Of a stretch of DNA of 64,000 bases, positions 1,966-63,266 are shown piece by piece; the stretch's first letter is position 1; each line of letters begins with the position of its first letter. Source of the stretch: Eucalyptus grandis (lineage: Eukaryota > Streptophyta > Magnoliopsida > Myrtales > Myrtaceae); contig NC_052621.1 of NCBI RefSeq assembly GCF_016545825.1, forward strand, positions 15,798,910 to 15,862,909, written 5' to 3'. Made by a program: the position numbers and the translations under genes. Below the pieces are notes generated by a model. It had not been told where the DNA came from, searched no databases, and saw nothing but the letters and a program-made list of their open reading frames with translations.

Positions 1966-3548
1966 TAGGGGTGGATAATGAGAATCGTTTGAATTGAAAA
2001 CTGTTCAAACCATACTAGGCTGGCCGATTTTGGGCCGTTCCCACTAGCAGTGGTCTAGTTCTTGATTCCTATTCTTGGAACAGGTGATCGGTCGATCCGG
2101 TTCCAGGTTCCAGGGTGGGAGCGAATCTCAAGAATTGGACTAACCGGAGTAGACGGAACAAACAAGGCTAATGTCACCATATTGTTTTACTGTTGTGCAT
2201 GTAGAGAGAATGTTTTGGCCTACAAGTCTACAGACAACCCTTATCAAGACGAAATGGTCTTAGATTCAATTTCATTTTGCCTCTCCACCAATTGGCCAGG
2301 ACACATGGGGTGTTACGGGAAATAAAAGTTGAATGGTGGTTATGCTTAGTGCCCTTGTTTGGATCGAATGCAATTGTGGAGGTCCTCTCCAGATGTTTGA
2401 GCAAAGTGGTTGTCGTACTATAACAACATGCCTTAGCTGTCTATGCTTGAGAGAACTAATCTGCAATGAAACATGATGGTACTTGAATACATGTGCTTTC
2501 TTGCACTAGTTATGATGCGTGATGGGGTGAGTGATTCAAGAATGGAGATTTTTTTTTTTTTTTGTGGGGATTTTTGTGGTTAAGTGTATGGAGTAGTGTA
2601 TACGGTAAAGAAACAAAGAGGAATAAGAAAAGATAGAACGATCTCCTCCCAAGGTATAAAGGCCACGCCACCAACCGAGGTTGAGGATCGAGATTTACGA
2701 AGCTCACCACCAAGGCCTAAAGCTTCCACCAACCAAGGATAAAGCACTTCGGGATAGGAGAAGCTCACCACCAAGGCCTAAAGATTCCACCAGCCAAGGA
2801 TAAAGGGCTTCTTGGCTCACCACCAAGGAGTGATCTATGCTCCAAGGATAAAGAAACCGAAAGGAGTTATCCACTCTCCAAATGAGTTCACTCAAGCAGA
2901 GGAAATCTCACCATTTTCATTCATGAAATTCGTATCTCCCCTACATTTGATAGTTTCCCCTACTTATAGGAGGATTTTAGCCTTAGGAAATATTAAAAAC
3001 AAACTTTAATAACCTAGGAATTAAACGTTTGACTCTTGAGCTACATAAAAATAAAAACAGCTAGGAACTTAATAAAAAACAATTATTAACACGGGAACTA
3101 AATGCCTTTAATCGTCGGCCTTCCACATTCTCGAACCGTTAGCTTTTCGTGTTCTTGAACCTTTGGCTTTCCATATTCTTGAACCGCATTCGTGAACTTT
3201 TAGCCTTCCCATAATTCGAACTCCTCCCTTGACCAGAAAATAATCCTCCTGAAACTTCATCAATTAGTCATACAAGACATCTAAAATGGCCTCTCATTAA
3301 TACCTATCGATATACCACAAAGTACTGATAAGTAATTAACATTATTCATTCAAAATGACCAATCGAATAACATAATGCCCAACTTCTTTATTGGCTTGGA
3401 TAAGCATTGATGGTTCTGAGTTGGTCGATGGAGCTACGTTGGATGCACCCGCATCAAGTTATCAGCAAATTGACCAGTTCCATGGGACTAGGCTAACTGA
3501 TCCTCAATCCTAGATATTGGAAATCGGATTGGAAACTGATCACTCCTA
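1966..3548. mobile_element. Non-autonomous hAT-like element
   Basis: The left end reads TAGGGGTGGA and the right end CACTCCTA, so the termini are short inverted repeats of the TAGGGGTG type common in plant hAT elements. The 8 bases just outside are GTTTTAAC (1958-1965) and GTTTCAAC (3549-3556), matching at 7 of 8 positions, which is the target-duplication length of hAT. No transposase frame is present, so it is non-autonomous. The interior holds G+C-richer sequence near both ends and an apparently foreign block around 2500-3300. Ends and duplication are seen directly; the superfamily is inferred from them. Confidence 0.6.
2702..2835. repeat. Short tandem repeat array, about 50-61 bp units
   Basis: Roughly two and a half imperfect direct copies of a unit beginning GCTCACCACCAAGG and continuing with a CCAAGGATAAAG segment start near 2702, 2763 and 2814. 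Downstream is a CCTACTTATAGG stretch that looks like a weak LTR-type promoter. The block is probably a piece of an older retroelement sitting inside the hAT-like element. No coding function is proposed. Confidence 0.45.
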
Positions 3549-3556
3549 GTTTCAAC

Positions 3557-4293
3557 AGTGGCCATTACCACTACCACTGCTACTTATGATCATTGACGCC
3601 GGCTACCCTTCATGCGCATTAATCTAATACGACCACCACTATCTGTTAACTGGTCACATTCTTCTAAGTCAAGATCTAATGGGTGGAGAAGGAATTGAAA
3701 AGTTCTTAATTGGGCAAATATCAGTTTTTGAACCCACGTTCTTCTTTGCTTTCTTAAATGCCCAAATTGCTCGGTCAACACGTTCATAAAAGTGCTTATA
3801 CCAATAAGACAGAGAATCGGTGTTTGTGGTAGTAAATAGGACTGACTGCGTCCACGATGGGGGGCGGTGGTCGCTTTGCCGAAGTAAGTTTTGTAGGACA
3901 ATAGAGAAGGAGAGAAAACAATGAAATAACCAGAAACAAAAAATATATAAAAAAATCCTTTGAATGTTAGGGTGAATTGTACTTTTTTGGCACCACGCGC
4001 TAATAAAAAGCGCATGATAGAAAAAAAATCACATTAGATTTTTTCATCATCCAATATTAATAGAATCAACGAAGAAATTTGAATTTATAAATTTTAAATA
4101 TAATATAGCTTAATTATAATAATATTTTTTTTGGTCGAAGCTTAATTATACTATTTAAAACTTTAGGAATTAGTCAAACTTTTGGTACACATTTCATATG
4201 ATGCACTTATCCCTGAAAATCTCGTTATTAAATAGTTCAATGATTGAAGTGCGTTTACATATCGATTCTATGAAGAATTTTAGGGGAATAAGG
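3557..4293. other. Intergenic, no recognisable gene
   Basis: A 141-codon open frame on the - strand (3590-4015) has no recognised domain, low-complexity stretches and no sign of a gene structure. I regard the stretch as non-coding. Confidence 0.5.
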
Positions 4294-4309
4294 GTCATAT
4301 TACACATTA

Positions 4310-4551
4310 TTATTATTTTTTTTTGATGATCAATGATCCGCCGAGAATGCCATTTTTGGCTTACGCCAATTCGGGGTCTCACGAGCCTCCGCAATGGAAG
4401 CCCAACGGCGACTATATCTCGGAGGAAGCTGGCCCAGCAACCCATCGCCGGGTTTCCCTCACTTAAATTACTAGCACCGTGGGGATTCGAATTCTCGACC
4501 GCATCGAAGCAGAGGAGAACGAATACCAGCGCGGCTATCCACGGATGGGTA
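4310..4551 (-). mobile_element. tRNA-derived SINE with 16-bp target duplication
   Basis: An exact 16-bp direct repeat, GTCATATTACACATTA, lies at 4294-4309 and 4552-4567 and brackets about 242 bp. Just inside the left copy is a T-rich run with TTA triplets, that is, an A-rich tail on the - strand. Read on the - strand, the 5' part contains TAGCCGCGCTGG, close to a pol III A box, and about 50 bp further AATTCGAATCC, close to a B box. Tail, long target duplication, size and boxes together define a tRNA-type SINE. It has no coding capacity. Confidence 0.8.
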
Positions 4552-4567
4552 GTCATATTACACATTA

Positions 4568-5214
4568 GTTCGGGCTAGCCCATCCCAAGAAGTCCCTCCT
4601 CCACCGGTTATTCGTAACCAATCTTCTTCTGAGGTATTATATGGTTCACTTGTCTTATTTTTGTTGTTGTTTGGTGCCCCTTGTTCTTCTTCAACTTCTT
4701 GAAAGTATCAAACATGACTGTTTGCACGGCTCGTTGTTCTCTTAGTTATGACATTGAAAATGACGGATATAGATGTTGAGATAGTCCTTTTGATCATCTT
4801 CCCTTATAATGTCATTTTTGAAGAAAGCATAATGTTCTCGTTACTTTTTTCATTTGATGCTATTTTTCAGAAGGTATTAAACATATTGAAAATATTTATC
4901 ACTTTACTCGACATTACCTTGATCGAGAACTCTGGAATCTTAATTTTGTCCATGTCCTTTCGGCTATTGCGGACGGTTTTACGATTACTGTTCATCCCGC
5001 CCTGTTTTCTCTATTTTCTCTCCCAAATTCCACCTTGAATTTGAATAGGGTGCTAGAGATTCTTACATTTTAAAAATAAAAGTTCTTGGAGATATTTTGC
5101 TATGTGTAGATATTTGGGTAATGCTAAAAGTACATCTGCCATCATTTAGGATATCTTTTTCTCGTTTGATTTTTGTATAGTCTCTATAAAGATTATACTT
5201 AATATACATGCTTT
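4568..5214. other. Intergenic, no recognisable gene
   Basis: AT-rich sequence with a 96-codon + strand frame (4748-5038) rich in hydrophobic residues but with no known motif and no flanking gene signals. Nothing supportable was seen here. Confidence 0.45.
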
Positions 5215-7404: not shown

Positions 7405-9013
7405 TACCAACGTTCTTCCATCTTTTTCTTTTTGGCTTCATCATAAATCAAAGGATTCAACCTCCACCTTTAGCAGTTCAGTTCGGAGGTCATTACTGAT
7501 TTTCTTTTTCCTTTTGCGAAAAATCATGTGTGTGACATTTACAGTCTAAGATATCCTCGCTCATCGCCCATTCTTTTTTTTTTCTCCCAAAAAATGGAGC
7601 TGATGAGCAGTTTACTGCAACTTGTGGAGATGGATGTGATAGTCTGATCCTCTCAGTAACTCTCAGCTACCCAAGACAAGAATGGCGATCTCCGCGAAAT
7701 CTCATGGAAAGATCAGCTTTTTGATTTCTCGGTTTCAGAAAGTTTGCTAAATTTGTTTTACCAACGAACAAATTTGTTTGTGTACCAAAAAAGTACAGAA
7801 AAACAGTTTTTTATTGTGCCTGAATGTTCTGATGACAGAGACCCTGATTTTCAGTCTGGTGCCTAAATTTGCGTTACCAAGAAAGGGAAAGAGTTTTGCT
7901 CTTTCATAAGCATTCTTAAACTAAAGTTGAGATGAAGAAAAAGAGCAAAAATCCTTCAAATGATTAGTTTCAGCACCTACCAATATTATCGTGTTTTTTT
8001 TTTGCTTATTAATGTCCTTTCTGCGGCTATTTCTCCTTAGGTGGTCGGCCATAGCAACTCATTTACCGAAGCGAACAGACAACGAGATCAAGAACTACTG
8101 GAATACGCATCTGAAGAAGAGATTGGCGAAAATGGGAATTGACCCAGTGACCCATAAGCCTAAAAATGACGCCCTAGTCTCTAGTGACGGTCAATCCAAG
8201 AGCGCGGCTAAGCTCAGTCACCTGGCTCAGTGGGAAAGCGCTCGGCTCGAAGCTGAAGCCAGATTGGCTAGAGAATCGAAATTACGTTCGCAGTCATTCC
8301 AGCATCACCACAGCAGCAGCAACAGCAGCCAGGTTTATTCCGCGGCTTCCGCTTTGGCTTCCACTTCAGCTGCACCGCCCGGCCTCGTCAAAAAAGCCAC
8401 CGCCCCACTGCCACCATCATCACCGCAGTCTCTTGACACTCTCAAAGCTTGGACCGGTAGCTCATGGCCGTCAACCAAGTCCGGCGAAGGTAGTGGCGGT
8501 GCTGGAGGTTCAGCCAACGGGATCGCTGGCGATCTTGAGTCTCCTACTTCGACACTCACTTTCTCCGAGCCTATGAACGTGCTTTGTGAGAATCCCAAGC
8601 AAATGATCGAGTTTGTCGGTTCGTCGGGGTCATCCGACTCCGGGATGATCAAAGAAGAAGGTGAACAAGAGTGGAAAGGCCTTGAAAGCTCAATTACGTT
8701 GCCAGAGTTCAAAGAGGGTATGGGGAACAACGCGGTCTCATTTACATCCACGTTCCCTGAAATGACAATGTCCCTAGAAGGTCCCTGGACTCCGGAGTCA
8801 CTGAGGGCGAGTAGCGTGCATGGTAACGTGGAAAATAACGACATGGAAGAAGGGTTCACTAGTCTTTTGCTTAATAGCTCCGGCGACCAGAGTTTATCAG
8901 ATGGCGGTGGTGAATCTGACAAACGTAGTGATTACTATGAGGATAACAAGAATTACTGGAATAGCATCCTTAATTTGGTGAACTCTTCGCCATCTGAGTC
9001 CCCAATGTTCTAG
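6911..9013 (+). CDS. MYB106: R2R3-MYB transcription factor, MIXTA-like (MYB16/MYB106 class)
   Basis: Three exons, 6911-7043 (133 bp), 7236-7365 (130 bp) and 8041-9013, encode 411 aa; the first two lengths are the canonical R2R3-MYB sizes and all splice sites are GT-AG. The start [18 protein letters not shown] is the standard N terminus. R2 spans about residues 14-62 and R3 about 67-115, with the usual Trp spacing and the recognition segment [17 protein letters not shown]. The motif [19 protein letters not shown] (about 150-168) marks subgroup 9, and the C terminus [19 protein letters not shown] matches MYB16/MYB106. The bHLH-interaction signature in R3 is absent, as is usual for this clade. 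Family members act in the nucleus and promote conical or papillate epidermal cells and cuticle and wax synthesis. MYB16 and MYB106 cannot be separated from sequence alone. The gene appears intact. Confidence 0.93.
7366..8040 (+). other. MYB intron 2 with CT microsatellite
   Basis: This 675-bp intron starts with the GT donor at 7366 and ends in TTAG at 8040. A pure CT repeat occupies 7371-7400 right after the donor. Intron 1 (7044-7235) contains a CTC/TCC-rich repeat near its acceptor (about 7194-7220). Both are length-variable sequence close to splice sites. Confidence 0.75.
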
Positions 9014-45256: not shown

Positions 45257-46533
45257 GGAGAAAATATTGGGTGGTCCGGGACCTCCACGTCAGCGTGGTC
45301 CCGGACCACTCACGCGGCGCCACGTGGAAGTGTGGGCCCCTTGCTGTCTCTCCACCTCTTCTCTCCGACATCGTTCCAATTCAAACCAACGCGCGGGCAT
45401 TCTCTCTCCTCTCTCTTCTCACTCTATCCCCTCTTTCCTGACCCGACGACTCTCTCCCAAATAGCGCTCGCTCTCCGACGACGGCCGCGCTCTCTCCGAC
45501 GACGGCGACGCTCCCTGCCGACGACGGCCTGTCTCTCTACTCGCCGGCCTCTTCGCTCTCCGACGACGGCCGCCCTCTCTTCGCTCTCCGACGACGGCCG
45601 CCCTCTCTTCGACGAAGGCGACGCTCCCTCCCGACGACGGCCGTGCTCTCTTCGACGACGGCGACGGCGACGCTCCCTCCTGACGACGGCCTCTCTCTCT
45701 ACTCCACGGCCTCTTCGCTCTCCGACGACGGCGACTCTCCCTCCCGACTACGGCCCCTCTCTCTACTCGACGGCCTCCTCCTCCCGACCTCTTTGTTCCC
45801 GAATCGCGCTCTCCTGACGCTGGGCTTTCTCCGACGAGGGCCGCGCTCTCTCCGCTATGGTCAAAGCGGTCTCTCCCGAGAAGCCCTAGATCTGCGACGA
45901 CAATCCCCGCTTCACTTCGTACAGGGCCGACGAGGTCCTTGGTCGGAACTGGTGAGTTGGTCCCTCTCGTGTCGATTTGATTCGTGGGGCTTTTCCCGGC
46001 CGCCTCTGTTTTGGTCGGTCTAGCGGGTAGTGGAAATGGAGATGATTTATGGGCTCTGCTCTTCTTTTGTTTTGCTGTATAGGGGTATTCCTGGGATCTA
46101 TCTGTCGGATGAAGGAGAGCTTGTTGTTTTGAAGTTTGAGATATGTTGTAAAGGAGCGATTTTTCCGGCTGCCTCTGTTTTGGTCGTTCTAGTGGGTAGT
46201 GGAAATGGAGAGGATTTCTGGGCTCTGATCTTCTTTGTCTTACTGTTTGGGGTAGTCCTGGGATCTATCTGAAGAATGAAGGAGAGCTTGTTGCTTTGAT
46301 GTTTGAGATTTGTTGTAAAGGAGCGACTTTTCGTGGAGGGTACGTGTTAACTCGTTTGGTATGTGAGAGAATTTGAAGGATAGAAGGAATACGAGGTAAG
46401 AGATGTTGATTGGTGTACCAGAGAGCGTGAAAATAGGGCGGTTTTATTGGTACATCATCAGTAATAATTTCAATTTGGGGCGTGGTCTTGTAATATAGAT
46501 ATAGCGTATTTAATAGGCAGACCAATCAGAATA
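45257..46533 (+). repeat. Left terminal inverted repeat (about 1.28 kb)
   Basis: The arm starts with a near-palindrome (GTGGTCCGGGACC at 45271-45283, GGTCCCGGACCAC at 45297-45309). It continues through a G+C-rich minisatellite of TCTCCGACGACGGC-like units (about 45430-45780), a LOV-like exon (45857-45946) and two imperfect copies of a segment containing GGTAGTGGAAATGGAGA (about 46025 and 46195). The long Arg/Ser/Pro frames here are by-products of the minisatellite. Confidence 0.85.
45857..45946 (+). pseudogene. LOV/PAS-like exon fragment within the TIR
   Basis: From ATG 45857 the frame reads MVKAVSPEKP, a TAG, then ICDDNPRFTSYRADEVLGRN. YRADEVLGRN resembles the strand just before the photoactive cysteine of plant LOV domains (GRNCRFLQ). 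The sequence then has TG followed by a good GTGAGT donor, so a cysteine codon would be split across the splice, as if the exon had been captured with its 3' boundary. The right TIR carries the same sequence inverted. The match is short and the source gene is not identified. Confidence 0.4.
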
Positions 46534-46959
46534 TTTTCTCTCTTTTCATCCAATTAACCACGCTGCCGCCTTTGCCTTGGCCACCTCCGACCAAAAGCTC
46601 CTCCAGTCTCACTCCCCAATTTAGCTGCCGCCTTGCACAACGCGAAGGATTACTTTACATGGCTGATCGCATTGCTCATAACTTGAAGGGTTCACAAGAT
46701 TCTGGTTTCGCTGATCTTAACTTGTTTCGATTTTAAGATTCTGGTTTAGCTGCTGCCTTATGATTGAACTTTCACACTTCTTGAGATGTTGCTGTTTATC
46801 TTACATTGGCTTGATAACAGGGTCTGCTATTGATATGATGACCAGCACCATAACTGTTGGTAGTCAAACCAACTGTTGCTCATAATGCTGAGGAGGATTT
46901 AACTGCTGTAAAGAATAAAATTTGGGATAGTCAAACCAGAAGGTGGCAAGCAATTGGCA

Positions 46960-47660
46960 TGCTAAGGCATGTTCTGTTCAGCTACTCTACCTTGGAGATT
47001 AAAGAAACATGCCATTGACTTCTTGCTTTGCACCACGGAAGGAGATATCTCACAGAGAGTGAGAGTGAAACTCTAGATTTCTCATAATTTGTTCCTAGCC
47101 ATTTTGCTGCCTTGTAGGTATTATAGTGAAAGATGTTGATTTTATGCCATTTAATTTGTATATTCTTCTTATCATTAAAGTGCAAAACATAGGGGATTGA
47201 GACGTCATCATGTACACATTGGATGCTGTGCTAAGGAAGAAAGCTTTTGATGTACTGGAAAGGGTTAGTGTTTTTTATTTAAGATCCTCTGCTCTTGCAT
47301 CACTAAACAGCTCGTCGCTCTTGATTACAAATTCTAACTCTTCCTTTATGGTAACGGCATTAAAGCCTGCTTAAATGACATAAGGGTATTTTTTCTTTAC
47401 ATGGAAGGATGCATAATGTGACCTGATTGCCTACAACTTGTGTAGGTAGCCATCCTTCTAGATATTGTTAGAAAAGTGAGGCAATCCAAAACTACAAACG
47501 AATTGTTGCAAGGAAATGTTGATAAAGTTTTCCATGAGACACCACTTTGGTTTGCTGAAGTGCTTGAACTGGTGGAATTGGTTCGGAAGCCTTCTAAGGG
47601 AGGCCCTCCAAGTCTTCTTGAACAAAGTGATGCGGTATATATGACTCCTTATTATTGATT
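46960..47660 (+). pseudogene. Captured ALF4-like gene fragment
   Basis: Three exon-like pieces with intervening intron sequence: ATLPWRLKKHAIDFLLCTTE (about 46980-47040), then TLDAVLRKKAFDVLERV (about 47215-47265), then ILLDIVRKVRQ...ETPLWFAEVLELVELV with RKPSKGGPPSLLEQSDAV (about 47446-47637, acceptor TAG before it and GT after it). The pieces resemble ABERRANT ROOT FORMATION 4 of plants as I remember the family, a protein needed for lateral root initiation and SCF regulation. Stops interrupt it, and the N-terminal and C-terminal thirds are missing. It lies next to the left TIR inside the element. Confidence 0.5.
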
Positions 47661-48121
47661 ATTCCCATACTGTCTCCTTCCTTGGATGATGGCCGCTCCT
47701 TATTTCTTTTTAGGTTGTGACATTTTCCATGGTGTAGACTCTTCTGAATGGGTTTAAAGGTCATTGGTTTTCATAAGACCATTGAATGCTCAAAATGAAT
47801 AGGAATAGCAAGCTGAAAAAGCCAATTCAAAAGTATCCATTTTTCAATGTTAACTTTTGAGATGCGTAGTTGAGGGAAGTCTATATTTGCATGTGATGTG
47901 CAATAACACTATCCCAATTTCTTTTTTAGATAAAGCAAACACATTAGAAATGAGTTCACGATTGTGAATGGTAATTTTTTGTGGCATTACTTGAGTTAGG
48001 TAGAAGGAGTCCTAATCTCTAGCTTGCTGCTAAATTAGCTTTCTAAGAATTCAACCCGGCTTGAGGCCTGATGTCTAAGTTAACTTTTTATTAGTTTCTG
48101 ACTTCTATGGTTGTTGCCTTA

Positions 48122-48537
48122 TAGGATATTGCTTGCTCTAGGCCTGATATGAAGTTGCTTATTTCAAGTGCCAAACTAGATGTGGACAAGTTCAGTGATT
48201 TTTTTCACTCCACCCTGATATTTAGATATCCAGGAAGGCGGTATCCAGTTGAAATTCTTCACACCAGTGCACTTGAAGCAGATTACTTGGATGCAGCTAT
48301 TGTTACTGCTCTTCAAATACATGTGCAGCAACTGTGTGGCGATATTTTGATTTTTCTTATCAGTCAAGAGGAAATTGAAGCATCGGAAGAGCTTTTGAAG
48401 CATATGTAAGGGGTTTTGGCTCCAAAATTGCCGAACTCATAATATGCCCAATATATGCTAATTTGCCTACAGATCTTCAGGCAAAGATATTTGAACCCAC
48501 GCCAGAAGGTGCTCGTAAGGTGGTCCTTGTGACAAAT
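48122..48537 (+). pseudogene. Captured DEAH-box RNA helicase fragment
   Basis: The frame reads RPDMKLLISSAKLDVDKFSD, then FRYPGRRYPVEILHT and EADYLDAAIVTALQIHVQQL with GDILIFLISQEEIE, and after a frameshift near 48400 KIAELIICPIYANLPTDLQA and KIFEPTPEGARKVVL. This is the end of RecA domain 1 and start of domain 2 of a spliceosomal DEAH helicase (PRP2/PRP22 type). Motif III SAT has become SAK, and the usual TGQEEI is SQEEI, so the fragment is non-functional. It covers only about 135 residues of a roughly 1,000-residue protein and is followed at once by CDPK sequence. Confidence 0.8.
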
Positions 48538-48573
48538 AGTTTTAAGGTTGTATTTTTAATTGACTTGTGCAGA

Positions 48574-49757
48574 GCATAAGTGGATACAGAATGTGGACAG
48601 GGCTCCCAACGTTTCACTAGGACAAAATGTCCAGACAAGGATAAAGCAATTCTCTTTGATGAATAAGTTCAAGAAGAAAGTTCTCTGAGTGAGTCCTTGG
48701 ATATTGCCTTGTTGGATTTCAGTGCCGTTCTTAGTGCAAAGTTAAACTTGAATCATGTTTCCCTCATTGTTAATGTAGGTAGTAGCAGACAATTTGGCTG
48801 ATGAGCAAGTGGATCATATCAAAGAGATGTTCCACGTGATGGACACCGATAAAAATGGAGATCTGACATTTGAAGAGTTGAAACATGGCCTGCACAAATA
48901 TGGACAGCAAGTTGCTGATCCTGATGTGTAGATGCTGATGGATGCAGTAAGATCACCTATTCAACAGCTTAGCACATTTTTTTTTTTTTGACATGGTTTA
49001 TGTTTTCTTCTTCCATGTCAACGCATTGTATGCTGTGAAGTGCATGATTTTGCTTAAATTGCAAGGCATTTGGAAGATTAAGGATGGATTACATAATACG
49101 GAACTATGTTTTTCATCAGTTAGTCAAAGATTTGATCATGAGGTTGTATCACCATTTCACATAATTGATAGAACTTCTTGCAAAATCAAATGGATTTCGA
49201 TAATTTGATGAGTCACAATTTCTTGTGTTAGCATCTAAAATAGAACTCCATCTTATATGAGAATAGGCTGATGAAGATGGAAGTGGAACGCTGAACTGTT
49301 AGGAGTTTGTGACTATGTTAGTTCACTTGAGAAGGATTGGTAGCGATGACCACCTTACTCGAGCTTTTGAATTCTTTGACAAGAAACAAAGCGGATATAT
49401 TGAATTCGATGAGTTGAAAGACGCTTTGATAGATGACAATCTTGGTCCGAACAATGAAAAATTTATTGAAGACATCATTTTCAATGCTAATCTAGATAAG
49501 GTAATACATAACCAGAACAACCTGCAATTTGGAATCTGTGTAATCTTGTTCATATACGAAATAGAGTCCTCATTTTGTGGTGGATGTATTTCAGGATGGT
49601 TGGATCAGTTATGATAAATTCAAGGCCATGATGAAAACAAGCACGGACTGGAAAATGGCTTCACGCCAGTACTTGAGAGCAATGCTAAACGGGCATTGGG
49701 AAGGAGGCATTCTTCCCTCAGAGGCTAAAAGATGTTCCACCCATGGCTTCTTAATTT
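48574..49757 (+). pseudogene. Captured calcium-dependent protein kinase (CDPK) fragment
   Basis: Exon-like pieces with introns retained: 48574-48687 (APNVSLGQ...[15 protein letters not shown], junction/autoinhibitory region), 48780-48947 (DEQVDHIKEMFHVMDTDKNG, EF-hand 1), 49267-49500 (GSGTLNC..., FEFFDKKQSGYIEFDELKDA, EF-hands 2-3) and 49595-49757 (DGWISYDKFKAMMKT, EF-hand 4, then DWKMASRQYLRAMLN). In-frame stops occur in the first and second EF-hand pieces. The kinase domain is absent. CDPKs couple calcium binding to phosphorylation; this piece cannot. The C-terminal MASRQY motif suggests the CPK7/8/10/13/30/32 group. Confidence 0.8.
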
Positions 49758-49759
49758 GA

Positions 49760-50930
49760 TCCAGATGAATCGAGAAGAAACAAAATCGAAGTCTCATCAA
49801 AAGGGTATTGGGAAGGAGGCATTATACAAAATCATTGCATTGGTTTGCTACGTAGTGACATAAATGCTTTGTGAAAATTTTGAATACATGGGGTCTAAAT
49901 AGTCAGATTCCTATGCCGCTTGGCATTCGAATTCTCTTTTTATGTTTTTATTTTCCGTAATTAAAGGGAAAATCAATTGAAACTACTAATCAGAGTTGGT
50001 TTGCAATGCCTATCCTAATCAACTTGAGGAATTTGAAGGCCCATATTGTAGCAACCTAACAATCTCCATGAGCATATGGTTTTTGGTGTTAAATGCAAAG
50101 CAATGTCATCGTAAAGTTGCATATTAACTTGCAAATCTCACATTATAGGATACTAGATCTTCTAGCTCATATCAAGTGAAATTGTTGCAAGTTTGAATAC
50201 AAACACAAGATATATTGTAAAACTCAGCCACATCTGTCAATTTCATGAAGTGAATTCACCTCTTGAGCCCCTCCATAGATCATAGTTCAAATAGAAAATG
50301 TTGAATGATTTCATCTAGGCGTGTATATCAAATATATTGACCAAATGAAGCATTAGATATTTACTCATATAAATCAAAATTTCAAATCGTAACTTGAATA
50401 TTGCAAATAAACTAAACAAATTGAGCTCATCCATCAATACTAGGAATCTATTAAAATTAAGATATATAGCTCTTTATGCTTCGCAACATTCAAATAAAGC
50501 TCCTAAGAGACCCATCCAAGCTTCAAAGCAACTATTGTTGTTGTCCACAAACGTGTCATGTTCCCATTAAACTTACATTGCTTTTTCATGTAATAAATGA
50601 CCGAACCCATGTGTTCGTGTTGATTGTGCACATTCATATGAGAACTGCAATTATACTTCAGAAAAATTCTCTGTTTGAAGCACATCATACACAAGCAGAA
50701 TCATCCTTTCGGTTTTTCGAACCGTCTGAGTTAGAGCACCCCCACGCATCCAACATAATACAAACTCCGAAGTAATTCCTTTCAAAATAAGGATCAGATG
50801 AGCTCCAAGAGACAAAGTAATATGCAAAATATAATACAAACGGAGTACATTTGCCTCTTCCAACAACAAATAGATGAAATATTAAATGATTGGTGACAGT
50901 CACTATTTCTTTTTCTTTGCCAAATTAGTA
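49760..50930. other. Element interior without recognised gene
   Basis: AT-rich sequence between the + strand gene fragments and the - strand ARIADNE fragment. Short frames on both strands show no domain. It may be captured intron or intergenic sequence. Confidence 0.45.
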
Positions 50931-51227
50931 TGGTACCGACAATGAAACCCTACAGCCTATATACATGGGCCGGCATTATAGGCCACCGCCATCAACACAC
51001 AACAAGAGTAAACACAGGCCGAAAGCTGCTGCTGCTCGTGCTTGAATCAGTCATCACACCACACCAACAATTAAGCCTCCTAATAATTGATATGTCACTG
51101 GGAACTTGAACGATTCATACCAATAATCCTTTTATAGGACACTGCCCATGCGCTTGAACTGGTTCCTTGTCCATGAAAGTCGTGTTTCTGGAGAAAACCA
51201 TCCTTCTTTGTAAATTTTCCGTCACTG

Positions 51228-52945
51228 CCCTCATTTGCAATGCTGGCACATCTGGCAAGTGGTTGCAGATTTAACATTAACATACATCGGTTCAGCTGGA
51301 ACCAGCTCGAGTGTTGGTAGTTCCTTTTCCCCTTCCACCACCTCTACTTGCCTTGCTGCTCCCTCCATTCTTAGAGCTCGCTGCCCTGCTGCAACCACCA
51401 TGGGAATCCACATCTGATAGCCCATTCTCCAATGCTCTCACGAGGTTGTCAAAGTAGTTTCTGGTCACACTGTAGCAACAAAAACAGATGCAAGAAAGTC
51501 AAAATGCATGTCTATGTGCACACATGGGTGCTACTTCTGGAAGTCACAACAGAGGCTATTAAGAAAAGTGTCTTTGTAAACTACATTGCAGCTGAAGTAG
51601 AGAGGGCCACCAATCTTTTAATAAAAGGAGAGATGTGTTTGTGATAGAAAAACAGCTCCAAGAATTATTGTTTCCCACTAATACTCTATGAACTTAAATA
51701 AATAAACAAGTAACGGTCCATCAGCCTTATAACAACCAACCAATGCCATATGCACTGGAAGATGATATTCTTGGTAAGTCCATTGTCCAGGTTTGACTTT
51801 CGAATCAACAATCTTTTTAGCATAAAAATCCAGTCAAAAGAACTAGTGAGAATGCTTTTGGCTCGATCAGCTTTTAAGTTAACAATAAACTGCAGAGTCA
51901 ATATTATTCCATAAAGTAAACTTTGAAAGCTTGACAATAAAGAGCAGGATTAGAAATAGGAATGCTATGCTCAGGATGAGTCATGAGCTTCGCCAGAACT
52001 TTTTTACATAATATATGAAGCCAAAAAGAAGATTCCGCAGAATATTACATACACTAATTTATCAGAAGAAGCTGCTCATTGGTACATATCATGCTCTCTC
52101 CAAAAACAATAAAGCACATTTTTGGCGAAAGGAATGTAATCACCAATTCCAATATTAGTATTTTCATGTGCTATTCAGGAAAAAAATGGGCAGGCATTCG
52201 CCTATATGACAGAATGCCTATCCCCCCTCCTTTATGAGACACTTTTTTTTTAATCGTAGCCTAACTATTTCCCATTTCATAGATGGATATCTAGGGACTC
52301 AAGTCTAAATAAAATTGACTTTACACAATTGTAATTTGTACTAGACATATTTTACTCGACTAATTATGAAAATTGAATCTGACAAGAAGATACCTAGTAA
52401 GTCCAGCTAACTTGGTGCGGAAGTCATTAAAGTTACTAGAAGGATTCTCATCACTAAGGAACTGGTGAAGTTCCTTCTCTGCACACTGATGAAGCCTTTC
52501 CAATCTGAACTCTGCCTCACCTAGTAAAGAAACCATTTCATGTAAGTAAATAGGAAAACAAGAAGGATATGCACGGCCATTGTCTATCCACAATCCTACT
52601 CTCCAATACAAACCTTGCAAATACTCAAAAAATTGTTTCTTAGCATGATCATATTTTGGTAGATAATAACCATATGCATGTCCACTTGAGCACTCGCCTA
52701 CACTCAACTATCTGCAAACATCAAAGGAACCTAATTTAGTTTCACAGAATCAGGTCAGGATAATAAATCAAAAACACTCAATCAGATTTTAACCTATATA
52801 ACAGCTGTATTTACATTCCAAACCGAAAATCACATAAATCATATTTAAGTTGAATTAAGTAATAAAACCTGTTGTCGCCTCTATGATGAACTTCAACTGT
52901 GACTCACTGGCATTGTGTGTCACTAAGCTTATTGAGCTGACAAGA
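51228..52945 (-). pseudogene. Captured ARIADNE-type RBR E3 ligase fragment
   Basis: On the - strand, ESQLKFIIEA (about 52890) is followed by [10 protein letters not shown] (about 52690), then in a shifted frame [20 protein letters not shown], an intron, [20 protein letters not shown] and [12 protein letters not shown] (52524-52394). After another intron comes VTRNYFDNLVRALENGLSDV (about 51468), a Ser/Gly-rich linker and a frameshifted NVKSATTCQMCQ end. This order is the C-terminal Ariadne region plus the last zinc-ribbon-like motif of plant ARI7/ARI8. Frameshifts (a 2-base loss near 52670, and one near 51280) and loss of the RING region show it is broken. Splice sites are preserved, so it was captured from DNA, not from mRNA. 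Confidence 0.75.
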
Positions 52946-53789
52946 AGAAAAGACAAAACCTTATTTAATCAATAGCAAAAGGTCGGGAAGCATCAGCAGA
53001 CAACATAATTAAACCAGATGAATAGAAAAGCCATGCATCTTGCTTCCTATCACAAGAAAACAAAGATCAATTTATTAATTTAACATCATAAGCAGTTTAT
53101 CGCAACTCAACCTGCCCTGTTGCCATCTAGCATCAACACATTTACCCAAGATAGATTCTTTCTTCAGACACAACTGCAATCCTAGTGTACTCAATACCCA
53201 TGACCTGCCGACTAAAATGTTAGCCCAAGTACGAGAGGCAACCACATACGAAACAAAGATCTTCCTGGTCTTGTAGCACTCCTTAATACAGCAATGTGAA
53301 CCTAAGATCTATTTCTGCAGAAGTTACAACTGAATACATTTGTCACAAAGACTCTTAAGTAATATTATTAATTAATAGAAAATTTGGCTGTCAAGTGATG
53401 CAAAATGCTGTGAAATTAAATAACTGATATGGAATACTATTGATTTAGTAAGCGCTTCATCCTCTTCCTCCAATTACCTTTTGTGTCACGGCAACAATTG
53501 GAAATGTTGCCGCAAGAAAACAAAAACCATATACACACAGCAATCGCAAATCAAAGTATGTTCTACTCCAGAGAGAACAAAATACTGATGAAGAAAACGT
53601 CATAAAGAAAGTTTCCTCTTGATGCTGCATGTAAAAACTGAGAAAAGAAGGACAAGTTGGGCATCGCTGATTCAATTCACCCTAAAAATCACATGACAGG
53701 ATATGTGCTGACTGCTGAGTAGTTATGATGAATTCGCTTGTAACTGCGGAAAAGCTTTCCTTGAGTCCTACAAGCGAAATGTAATCCTG
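52946..53789. other. Element interior next to right TIR, no gene assigned
   Basis: This may be upstream intron sequence of the captured ARIADNE gene, but no coding segment was recognised with confidence on either strand. Confidence 0.4.
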
Positions 53790-55260
53790 TATTCTGATTG
53801 GTCTGCCTATTAAATACACTATATCTATATTACAAGACCACAACCCAAATTGAAATTATTACTGATGATGTACCAATAAAACCGCCCTATTTTCACGCTC
53901 TGGTACACCAATCAACATCTCTTACCTCGTATTCCTTCTATCCTTCAAATTCTCTCACATACCAAACGAGTTAACACGTACCCTCCGCGAAAAGTCGCTC
54001 CTTTACAACAAATCTCAAACATCAAAGCAACAAGCTCTCCTTCATTCTTCAGATAGATCCCAGGACTACCCCAAACAGTAAGACAAAGAAGATCAGAGCC
54101 CAGAAATCCTCTCCATTTCCACTACCCACTAGAACGACCAAAACAGAGGCAGCCGGAAAAATCGCTCCTTTCAACATATCTCAAACTTCAAAACAACAAG
54201 CTCTCCTTCATCCGACAGATAGATCCCAGGAATACCCCTATACAGCAAAACAAAAGAAGAGCAGAGCCCAGAAATCCTCTCCATTTCCACTACCTGCTAG
54301 ACCGACCAAAACAGAGGCGGCCGGGAAAAGCCCCACGAATCAAATCGACACGAGAGGGACCAACTCACCAGTTCCGACCAAGGACCTCGTCGGCCCTGTA
54401 CGAAGTGAAGCGGGGATTGTCGTCGCAGATCTAGGGCTTCTCGGGAGAGACGGCTTTGACCATAGCGGAGAGAGCGCGGCCCTCGTCGGAGAAAGCCCAG
54501 CGTCAGGAGAGAGCGCGATTCGGGAACAAAGAGGTCGGGAGGAGGAGGCCGTCGAGTAGAGAGAGGGGCCGTAGTCGGGAGGGAGAGTCGCCGTCGTCGG
54601 AGAGCGAAGAGGCCGTGGAGTAGAGAGAGAGGTCGTCGTCAGGAGGGAGCGTCGCCGTCGTCGAAGAGAGCACGGCCGTCGTCGGGAGGGAGCGTTGCTT
54701 TCGTCGAAGAGAGGGCGGCCGTCGTCGGAGAGCGAAGAGGCCGGCGAGTAGAGAGACAGGCCGTCGTCGGCAGGGAGCGTCGCCGTCGTCGGAGAGAGCG
54801 CGGCCGTCGTCGGAGAGCGAGCGCTATTTGGGAGAGAGTCGTCGGGTCAGGAAAGAAGGGATAGAGTGAGAAGAGAGAATGCCCGCGCGTTGGTTTGAAT
54901 TGGAACGACGTCGGAGAGAAGGAAAAATATTGGGTGGTCCGGGACCACCACGTCAGCGTGGTCCCGGACCACTCACACGGCGCCACGTGTATGGGGAAGC
55001 CGGAAAAGGACGAAACTCGGGGCCCACTTTTCTGACGCTCTCTCTCCTCTTTCTCTCTTTTTGTCCCCTCCCTCCTATGTGGCGCCATATGAGTGGTCCG
55101 GGACCACGCTGACGTGGCGGTCCTGGACCACCCAATATTTTCTCGAAGGAAAAAAGAAGAGGTGGAGAGACAGCAAGGGGCCCACAATTCCACGTGGCGC
55201 CGCGTGAGTGGTCTAGGACCACGCTGACGTGGAGGTCCCGGACCACCCGATATTTTCTCC
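53790..55260 (-). repeat. Right terminal inverted repeat (about 1.47 kb)
   Basis: Reverse complement of the left arm, including the GC-rich minisatellite (about 54500-54840) and the LOV-like exon (about 54378-54465). Its outer part is interrupted by the nested 217-bp element. Differences from the left arm are few, apart from that insertion and small minisatellite changes. Confidence 0.85.
54928..55144. mobile_element. Small element related to the TIR family, nested in the right arm
   Basis: Its ends TATTGGGTGGTCC and GGACCACCCAATATTTT are inverted copies of each other and match the termini of the 10-kb element. An exact 10-bp repeat, GAAGGAAAAA, flanks it (54918-54927 and 55145-55154). The left arm of the large element lacks the insertion at the matching place (near 45360), giving a natural empty-site control. 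It is therefore a MITE-sized relative that jumped after the arms were formed. Confidence 0.75.

Positions 55261-55731: not shown

Positions 55732-63266
<7,535 letters not shown>

What the first reader, a model, noticed from the sequence alone, without database searches (positions are those of the whole stretch)
45257..55260. A 10-kb element with very long inverted repeats that has collected four or more host gene fragments on both strands
The two arms (about 1.28 and 1.47 kb) are inverted copies of each other, and between them lie ALF4-like, DEAH helicase, CDPK and ARIADNE fragments, with introns kept and reading frames broken. Three fragments are on the + strand and one is on the - strand. 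Pack-MULEs are known to capture genes, but four unrelated donors in one element with TIRs of more than 1 kb is an unusually rich case and may be an undescribed family.
Basis: partly seen in the sequence, partly recalled or inferred. Interest (0 to 1): 0.88.

Follow-up and report, generated by a model that had tools for sequence, protein, structure and literature searches.

The report
Gene-collecting jumping element with giant ends
This 10-kb stretch of a Eucalyptus grandis chromosome is a Pack-MULE-like transposon that carries broken pieces of four plant genes between mirrored ends more than 1 kb long; its cargo was likely put together in steps, and it is predicted to be moved by a transposase made elsewhere in the genome.

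Summary
Window 45258-55259 (10,002 bp) begins GAGAAAATATT and ends in its inverted partner. The arms (1,276 and 1,470 bp) are 98.6% identical over aligned columns; the right one carries a nested 223-bp piece with the same termini. Inside lie ALF4, DEAH-helicase and CDPK fragments (+) and ARIADNE exons (-). It is a Mutator-type Pack element: the terminal 26-mer has 333 genomic matches (control 0), and 7 of 13 end pairs have perfect 9- or 10-bp target duplications (this copy 7/9). The interior is not private: five two-armed copies share parts of it, and many other places hold the composite with no arm match found. Source loci lie elsewhere: DEAH on C11, ALF4-like on C3. One place joins ALF4 to a longer DEAH piece with no CDPK hit, which points to stepwise assembly. 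Two sister elements have arms over 1 kb of another sequence; passages that I read give 14-500 bp for MULEs. Multi-gene capture itself is known. A public ALF4-DEAH gene model matches four window exons exactly, but two of three other copies are broken and changes fall on all codon positions. No transposase was found; that genome search did not complete.

The parts
45258..55259 (.). whole element, 10,002 bp, GAGAAAATATTGGG...CCCGATATTTTCTC
   Evidence: flanking 9-mers CTATTTCTG / CTATTTCGA (7 of 9)
45258..46533 (+). left arm (long terminal inverted repeat), GC-rich outer half with GACGACGGC-type repeats
53790..55259 (-). right arm (inverted copy of left arm), longer through a nested insertion
54922..55144 (.). 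nested 223-bp piece with the same termini inside the right arm; no clear target duplication (5 of 9)
   Evidence: six pairs of termini about 200-250 bp apart in the part of the list shown
46534..46754 (+). segment A, source unknown; present in 8 of the 18 other sequences compared
46755..47936 (+). ALF4-like fragment with introns; source-like locus C3:26.2517-26.2533 Mb (120 of 1,169 bases substituted)
48081..48538 (+). DEAH-box helicase fragment, part of an intron plus a truncated exon; source locus C11:32.0157-32.0162 Mb (35 of 458 bases substituted)
48756..49873 (+). CDPK fragment (EF-hands, introns kept, frame broken); intact source not found
51231..53514 (-). ARIADNE (ARI7/ARI8-like) C-terminal exons and introns, frame broken; the part beyond about 52950 is assigned by continuity only; intact source not found
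53515..53789 (.). segment G; next to an arm here and also next to a partial arm on the ALF4 side at C7:25.073 Mb, so probably once part of the arm
47210..48580 (+). public E. grandis gene model 'DEAH1-like' (P0001, 176 aa) reproduced exactly by exons 47210-47263, 47446-47634, 48125-48405, 48573-48580 with GT-AG introns: ALF4 exons joined to a DEAH exon

Best explanation
The window holds a 10,002-bp Pack-MULE-like element whose 1.3- and 1.5-kb arms are inverted copies and whose interior is a patchwork of ALF4, DEAH-helicase, CDPK and ARIADNE fragments; it was likely assembled in steps and is predicted to be moved in trans by a Mutator-type transposase. Shown: the arms, the shared termini, 9- or 10-bp target duplications at sister copies, four donor gene types, source loci on other chromosomes for two of them, two-armed copies elsewhere with internal deletions, and one locus with ALF4 joined to a longer DEAH piece and no CDPK hit. 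Inferred: the transposase; that new pieces enter by template switching during repair of gaps left by excision or replication; that ALF4 and DEAH were joined before CDPK and ARIADNE; and that arms grow because one end is copied onto the other.
For: Arms and termini. Terminal 26-mer with up to 3 mismatches: 165 forward and 168 reverse matches, control 0. Perfect 9- or 10-bp target duplications at 7 of 13 end pairs; two of the seven (L013, L014) share flanks, so six independent sites. Five two-armed copies: window, L009, C8b, L013, L014; L009 and C8b lack different internal blocks, L013 and L014 lack the same one. DEAH source with an open 361-aa frame on C11, Helicase_C and HA2 domains; ALF4 source-like locus on C3. 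Substitutions against the sources 10.3% (ALF4) and 7.6% (DEAH), against 2.2-4.4% between the window and five arm-bearing copies from ALF4 to the ARIADNE part, segment G excluded (0.7-2.2%), and 3.9-5.8% for the armless C5 copy: capture came before amplification. At C1:8.323 Mb the DEAH piece runs about 350 bases past the window's cut point along the C11 gene (404-bp alignment, 82.9%), and the CDPK query has no hit there (37 of 37 candidates scored); arm-like sequence of 75-89% lies on its ALF4 side. Inner-arm tree: the two arms of L009 group together (90) and both sides of the L013/L014 insertion group together (97), not by side. Both ends of sister L018 match the right end of L025 over about 570 bp but only 105 bp of its left end. 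Sister arms of 1,587 bp (L015) and 222 + 1,594 bp (L016) match these arms only over the outer 109-160 bp.
Against: This copy's own target duplication is imperfect (7 of 9), and 6 of 13 pairs lack a perfect one. No MURA transposase was seen, and the genome search for it did not complete (ten tries). Many copies of the composite have other flanks and no arm match, so the arms may be a late addition. In the arm tree the split of the window's pair has 71 and the C8b pair 56, and inner arms differ by only 1-2% between elements, so conversion between arms is suggestive, not proven. L018 against L025 can be read backwards: long ends first, one end lost later. L015 and L016 arms resemble each other (78.7-85.0% over their matching blocks), so they are one long-arm lineage, not two. 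CDPK and ARIADNE source genes were not located.
Confidence: 0.78

Rival explanations
1. The composite is an older repeat of another kind (for example a Helitron-like or other Pack element) and these MULE arms closed around part of it later.
For: L047, L048, L033 and L037 share about 0.85-1.5 kb upstream of the ALF4-side start that the window lacks; L047 and L048 also leave the ARIADNE side at other points. Copies with the same internal gaps recur at C5:26.10, C5:26.44 and C7:33.37 Mb, with no arm match there (40 of 80 candidates scored).
Against: C7:25.07 Mb has a partial arm plus segment G upstream of that extra DNA, and C1:49.53 Mb has segment G about 3.6 kb from it, so the extra DNA may simply be interior that the window form lost. 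The termini of L047 and L048 were not reached.
Confidence: 0.27
2. One event: this element caught all four fragments at once, and every other copy is a deletion product.
For: The window copy is the fullest arm-bearing one that I read; L009, C8b, L013 and L014 lack internal blocks.
Against: Source loci lie on C3 and C11; the C1:8.32 locus has more DEAH than the window and no CDPK hit. Divergence from the sources differs between fragments, which alone proves little since fragments may evolve at different rates.
Confidence: 0.12
3. Host segmental duplication or assembly inversion.
For: C5:20.954-20.960 Mb holds 6.1 kb of the interior contiguous and without arms; L013 and L014 have the same flanks in opposite orientation and are not independent insertions.
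Against: The C5 copy ends at a run of 100 N; five two-armed copies have the same arm structure; source loci of two fragments lie on other chromosomes; sister copies have target duplications.
Confidence: 0.02
4. The ALF4-DEAH chimera is a working new gene and the element persists because of it.
For: A public gene model of 176 aa matches window exons exactly with canonical splice sites. The parts read at C1:8.32 Mb are open too.
Against: Substitutions against other copies fall on all three codon positions (4/7/6 and 3/6/6 in the DEAH exon), the C5 copy has a frameshift with stops and the C7 copy has stops. No transcript data were examined.
Confidence: 0.04

Closest known systems
Pack-MULEs (passages of PMC8903248 and PMC4858842; PMC3310237 outline and results part 1)
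   Same: Inverted-repeat ends, 9-10-bp target duplications at sister copies, host gene fragments with introns, several donors in one element, broken frames, chimeric gene models.
   Different: Arms of 1.3-1.5 kb here and about 1.6 and 1.8 kb in two sisters; ranges that I saw in passages are 14-500 bp (PMC6446971) and 100-500 bp (PMC3903597). Parts of the cargo recur in rearranged form at many loci with no arm match.
MULEs with multiple or tandem TIRs (Ferguson and Jiang 2012, PMC3310237)
   Same: Additional terminal sequence lies inside one end.
   Different: Here the extra piece is a complete 223-bp two-ended unit like the short pairs, so nested insertion is likelier than tandem duplication, though its target duplication is unclear.
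Gap-filling and FoSTeST models for Pack-TIR elements (PMC8277862, passages)
   Same: Template switching joins unlinked loci inside an element that then multiplies.
   Different: Those data are from animals; here the order of steps is inferred from relatives in one plant genome.

Membership tests
Pack-MULE | 9-11-bp target site duplication | tested here: met
   7 of 13 end pairs perfect (four of 9 bp, three of 10 bp); the window copy itself 7 of 9, so for this copy alone the test is inconclusive
Pack-MULE | Long terminal inverted repeats of Mutator type | tested here: met
   shared termini at 333 matches. Assignment to Mutator rests on arm length, duplication size and recalled motif style, not on a transposase
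Pack-MULE | Fragments of host genes inside | tested here: met
Pack-MULE | No own transposase | tested here: inconclusive
   Nine translated pieces gave no transposase domain; not an exhaustive scan
Pack-MULE | Mobilised by a related MURA transposase with the same ends | not tested
   PF10551 search did not complete (ten tries)
Pack-MULE | Empty site in a related accession | not testable with these tools
   No second accession held
Tandem-TIR MULE | Second TIR copy on the ends without own target duplication | tested here: inconclusive
   One internal 223-bp two-ended piece in the right arm, flanking 9-mers 5 of 9

The most novel reading that the evidence does not exclude
A Mutator-type family that rewrites its own ends: subterminal and captured DNA is copied from one end onto the other, so that terminal repeats grow to 1.2-1.8 kb in at least two separate arm lineages and captured DNA becomes part of the terminal repeat, while gene cargo is assembled serially and passed in rearranged form among elements with different ends.
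Probability: 0.3. Interest if true: 0.7.

Novelty: new variant of a known kind. Interest (0 to 1): 0.5.

Why it matters
How transposons take up several unrelated genes, and why Mutator ends vary so much in length, are open questions. This family offers, inside one genome, source loci for two fragments, a likely intermediate (ALF4 joined to a longer DEAH piece), the full composite, deletion derivatives, and sister elements with short and long ends, so the order of steps can be tested by phylogeny. It also shows how such cargo is entered in public annotation as a chimeric gene, and this copy sits just upstream of an SnRK1-like kinase gene.

Tried and rejected
Assembly artefact and plain segmental duplication were considered and rejected (see rivals). 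L053 (C5:51.37 Mb) looked like the CDPK source but its frames are broken. L054 (C1:758 kb, 76% over 664 bp) looked like the ARIADNE source but showed no intact ARIADNE exon in the 1.4 kb read. PF08568 as a genome query gave nothing, in the controls either. Pfam and PDB searches of joined ARIADNE exons gave only a weak hit to a bacterial coagulase, which I take as chance. Different speeds along the element: inner arms and segment G differ least and outer arms most in nearly every comparison; I found no firm reading.
Full report
Where it is. The window is G000:C10:15798910-15862909 of a 616.5-Mb assembly in 36 contigs. A public protein found with the ALF4 piece is named for Eucalyptus grandis and its longest contig is 38,819,584 bases, the length of C10; a second such protein has the length of C7. 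I therefore take the plant to be E. grandis.

The element. It spans 45258-55259 (10,002 bp). Inverted arms: 45258-46533 and 53790-55259; 1,213 of 1,230 aligned columns are identical. The right arm is longer because of a 223-bp piece, 54922-55144, that has the same termini itself. The flanking 9-mers CTATTTCTG and CTATTTCGA agree at 7 of 9 bases.

The family. The terminal 26-mer with up to three mismatches has 333 matches (165 and 168 by strand) and none for the reversed control; in the part of the list that was shown, six pairs lie about 200-250 bp apart, like the nested piece. I examined 13 end pairs: 7 have perfect duplications (9 bp: L013, L014, L015, L027; 10 bp: L017, L018, L025), and 6 do not (window, nested piece, L009, L016, L024, C8b). 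L013 and L014 share flanks in opposite orientation, so they count as one insertion site. Ends, duplication size and cargo fit Mutator-like Pack elements. No transposase was identified: the PF10551 search did not complete.

The cargo. In element coordinates (window minus 45257): A 1277-1497 (source unknown), ALF4 1498-2679, B 2680-2823, DEAH 2824-3281, C 3282-3498, CDPK 3499-4616, then unassigned DNA, ARIADNE exons on the minus strand up to about 8257, and G 8258-8532. DEAH: the translated piece matches DHX16, DHX8 and PRP2, and the DNA matches an open 361-aa frame with Helicase_C and HA2 domains at C11:32.016 Mb, 35 of 458 bases substituted. ALF4: collinear locus at C3:26.25 Mb, 120 of 1,169 substituted, whose exons joined by hand hit PF08568; only 2.2 kb of that locus was read, so its integrity is not proven. 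CDPK: EF-hands and CDPK structures. ARIADNE: ARI7/ARI8 homologues, without a Pfam or PDB hit.

Not one element's private catch. Two-armed copies: window, L009 (8.3 kb), C8b (6.1 kb), L013 and L014 (4.7 kb each, the same missing block). L019 and L038 show one arm in the DNA read. The interior queries had 66, 48 and 42 matches (40 of 49, 37 of 37 and 40 of 71 candidates scored). Many of these places have no arm match (58 matches, 40 of 80 candidates scored, so arms may be missed). L047 and L048 carry extra DNA upstream of segment A, shared with L033 and L037, and leave the ARIADNE side elsewhere. L049 has DEAH, 43 bp of ALF4 and ARIADNE in another arrangement. C5:20.954-20.960 Mb holds 6.1 kb contiguous at 92.2%, with no arms in the 14.1 kb read, and ends at 100 N.

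Order of events. Divergence from the sources (10.3% and 7.6%) exceeds that between the window and five arm-bearing copies from ALF4 to the ARIADNE part (2.2-4.4%; segment G 0.7-2.2%), so capture came first. At C1:8.323 Mb, ALF4 is joined to a DEAH piece that continues about 350 bases past the window's cut point along the C11 gene, and the CDPK query has no hit there. The simplest reading is ALF4 plus DEAH first, then CDPK and ARIADNE. Deletion from a larger ancestor is not excluded.

The arms. Only about the outer 90-160 bp are common to the wider family. L015 has arms of 1,587 bp and L016 of 222 + 1,594 bp; these two resemble each other (78.7-85.0% over matching blocks) but not the window's arms beyond the outer part; L018 has 627 bp, and L017, L024, L025 and L027 have about 100-130 bp. 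Both ends of L018 match the right end of L025 over about 570 bp, and only 105 bp of its left end. In the inner-arm tree the L009 arms (90) and both sides of the L013/L014 insertion (97) group together; the window pair has 71 and C8b 56. I infer that ends are copied onto each other; the reverse reading (loss of one long end) stays open. Ranges that I saw in passages are 14-500 bp (PMC6446971) and 100-500 bp (PMC3903597).

Sister cargo. L025 carries a GH17 fragment (1.9e-21); L016 an AP-endonuclease fragment (2.9e-26) and a weak RF-1 match (0.0015, below the curated cut-off).

The gene model. P0001 (176 aa, 'DEAH1-like') is reproduced exactly by four window exons with GT-AG introns. Against other copies, changes are spread over codon positions; the C5 copy has a frameshift and the C7 copy stops, while the parts read at C1:8.32 are open. 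I take it for a fortuitous model; no RNA was examined.

Literature. Multi-locus capture is known: PMC8903248 (passages) cites rice Pack-MULEs and Arabidopsis Pack-CACTA, and finds that larger elements hold more loci; in its own rice set a significant number of multi-locus elements was reported only for Pack-Mariners. PMC4858842 (passages) gives 5-10% of MULE-derived putative genes with at least two parents. PMC3310237: outline and part 1 of the results. PMC13317346, PMC8277862, PMC1852403, PMC3903597 and PMC6446971: passages only. Jiang et al. 2004 was not read.

Noticed in passing
window 56106-59164: An SnRK1-like (AMPK alpha) kinase gene lies just downstream: kinase exon at 56106-56510 (best solved relative AMPK alpha-1, 6.9e-24) and a UBA-domain exon at 58889-59164. 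The element ends under 1 kb from the kinase exon. That it is SnRK1 is my reading of kinase plus UBA.
   Followed up: partly
window 52004-52418: A piece of about 415 bp inside the ARIADNE part matches alone at five other places (C2:26.668, C11:4.649, C1:10.668, C6:24.667, C2:40.713 Mb), so it may be an unrelated repeat inside the ARIADNE fragment.
   Followed up: no
L010-L012 (C8:67.022-67.045 Mb): A further arm with an identical 20-bp flank in inverted orientation lies about 16 kb from the two-armed copy C8b: probably a large inverted duplication, which may also explain why C8b shows no target duplication.
   Followed up: no
L025 2685-3446; L016 5949-6224: Sister elements carry GH17 and AP-endonuclease fragments.
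   Followed up: partly
L037 about 2600-3600: Possible hAT-like short insertion between segment G and the extra upstream DNA (motif style recalled, not tested).
   Followed up: no
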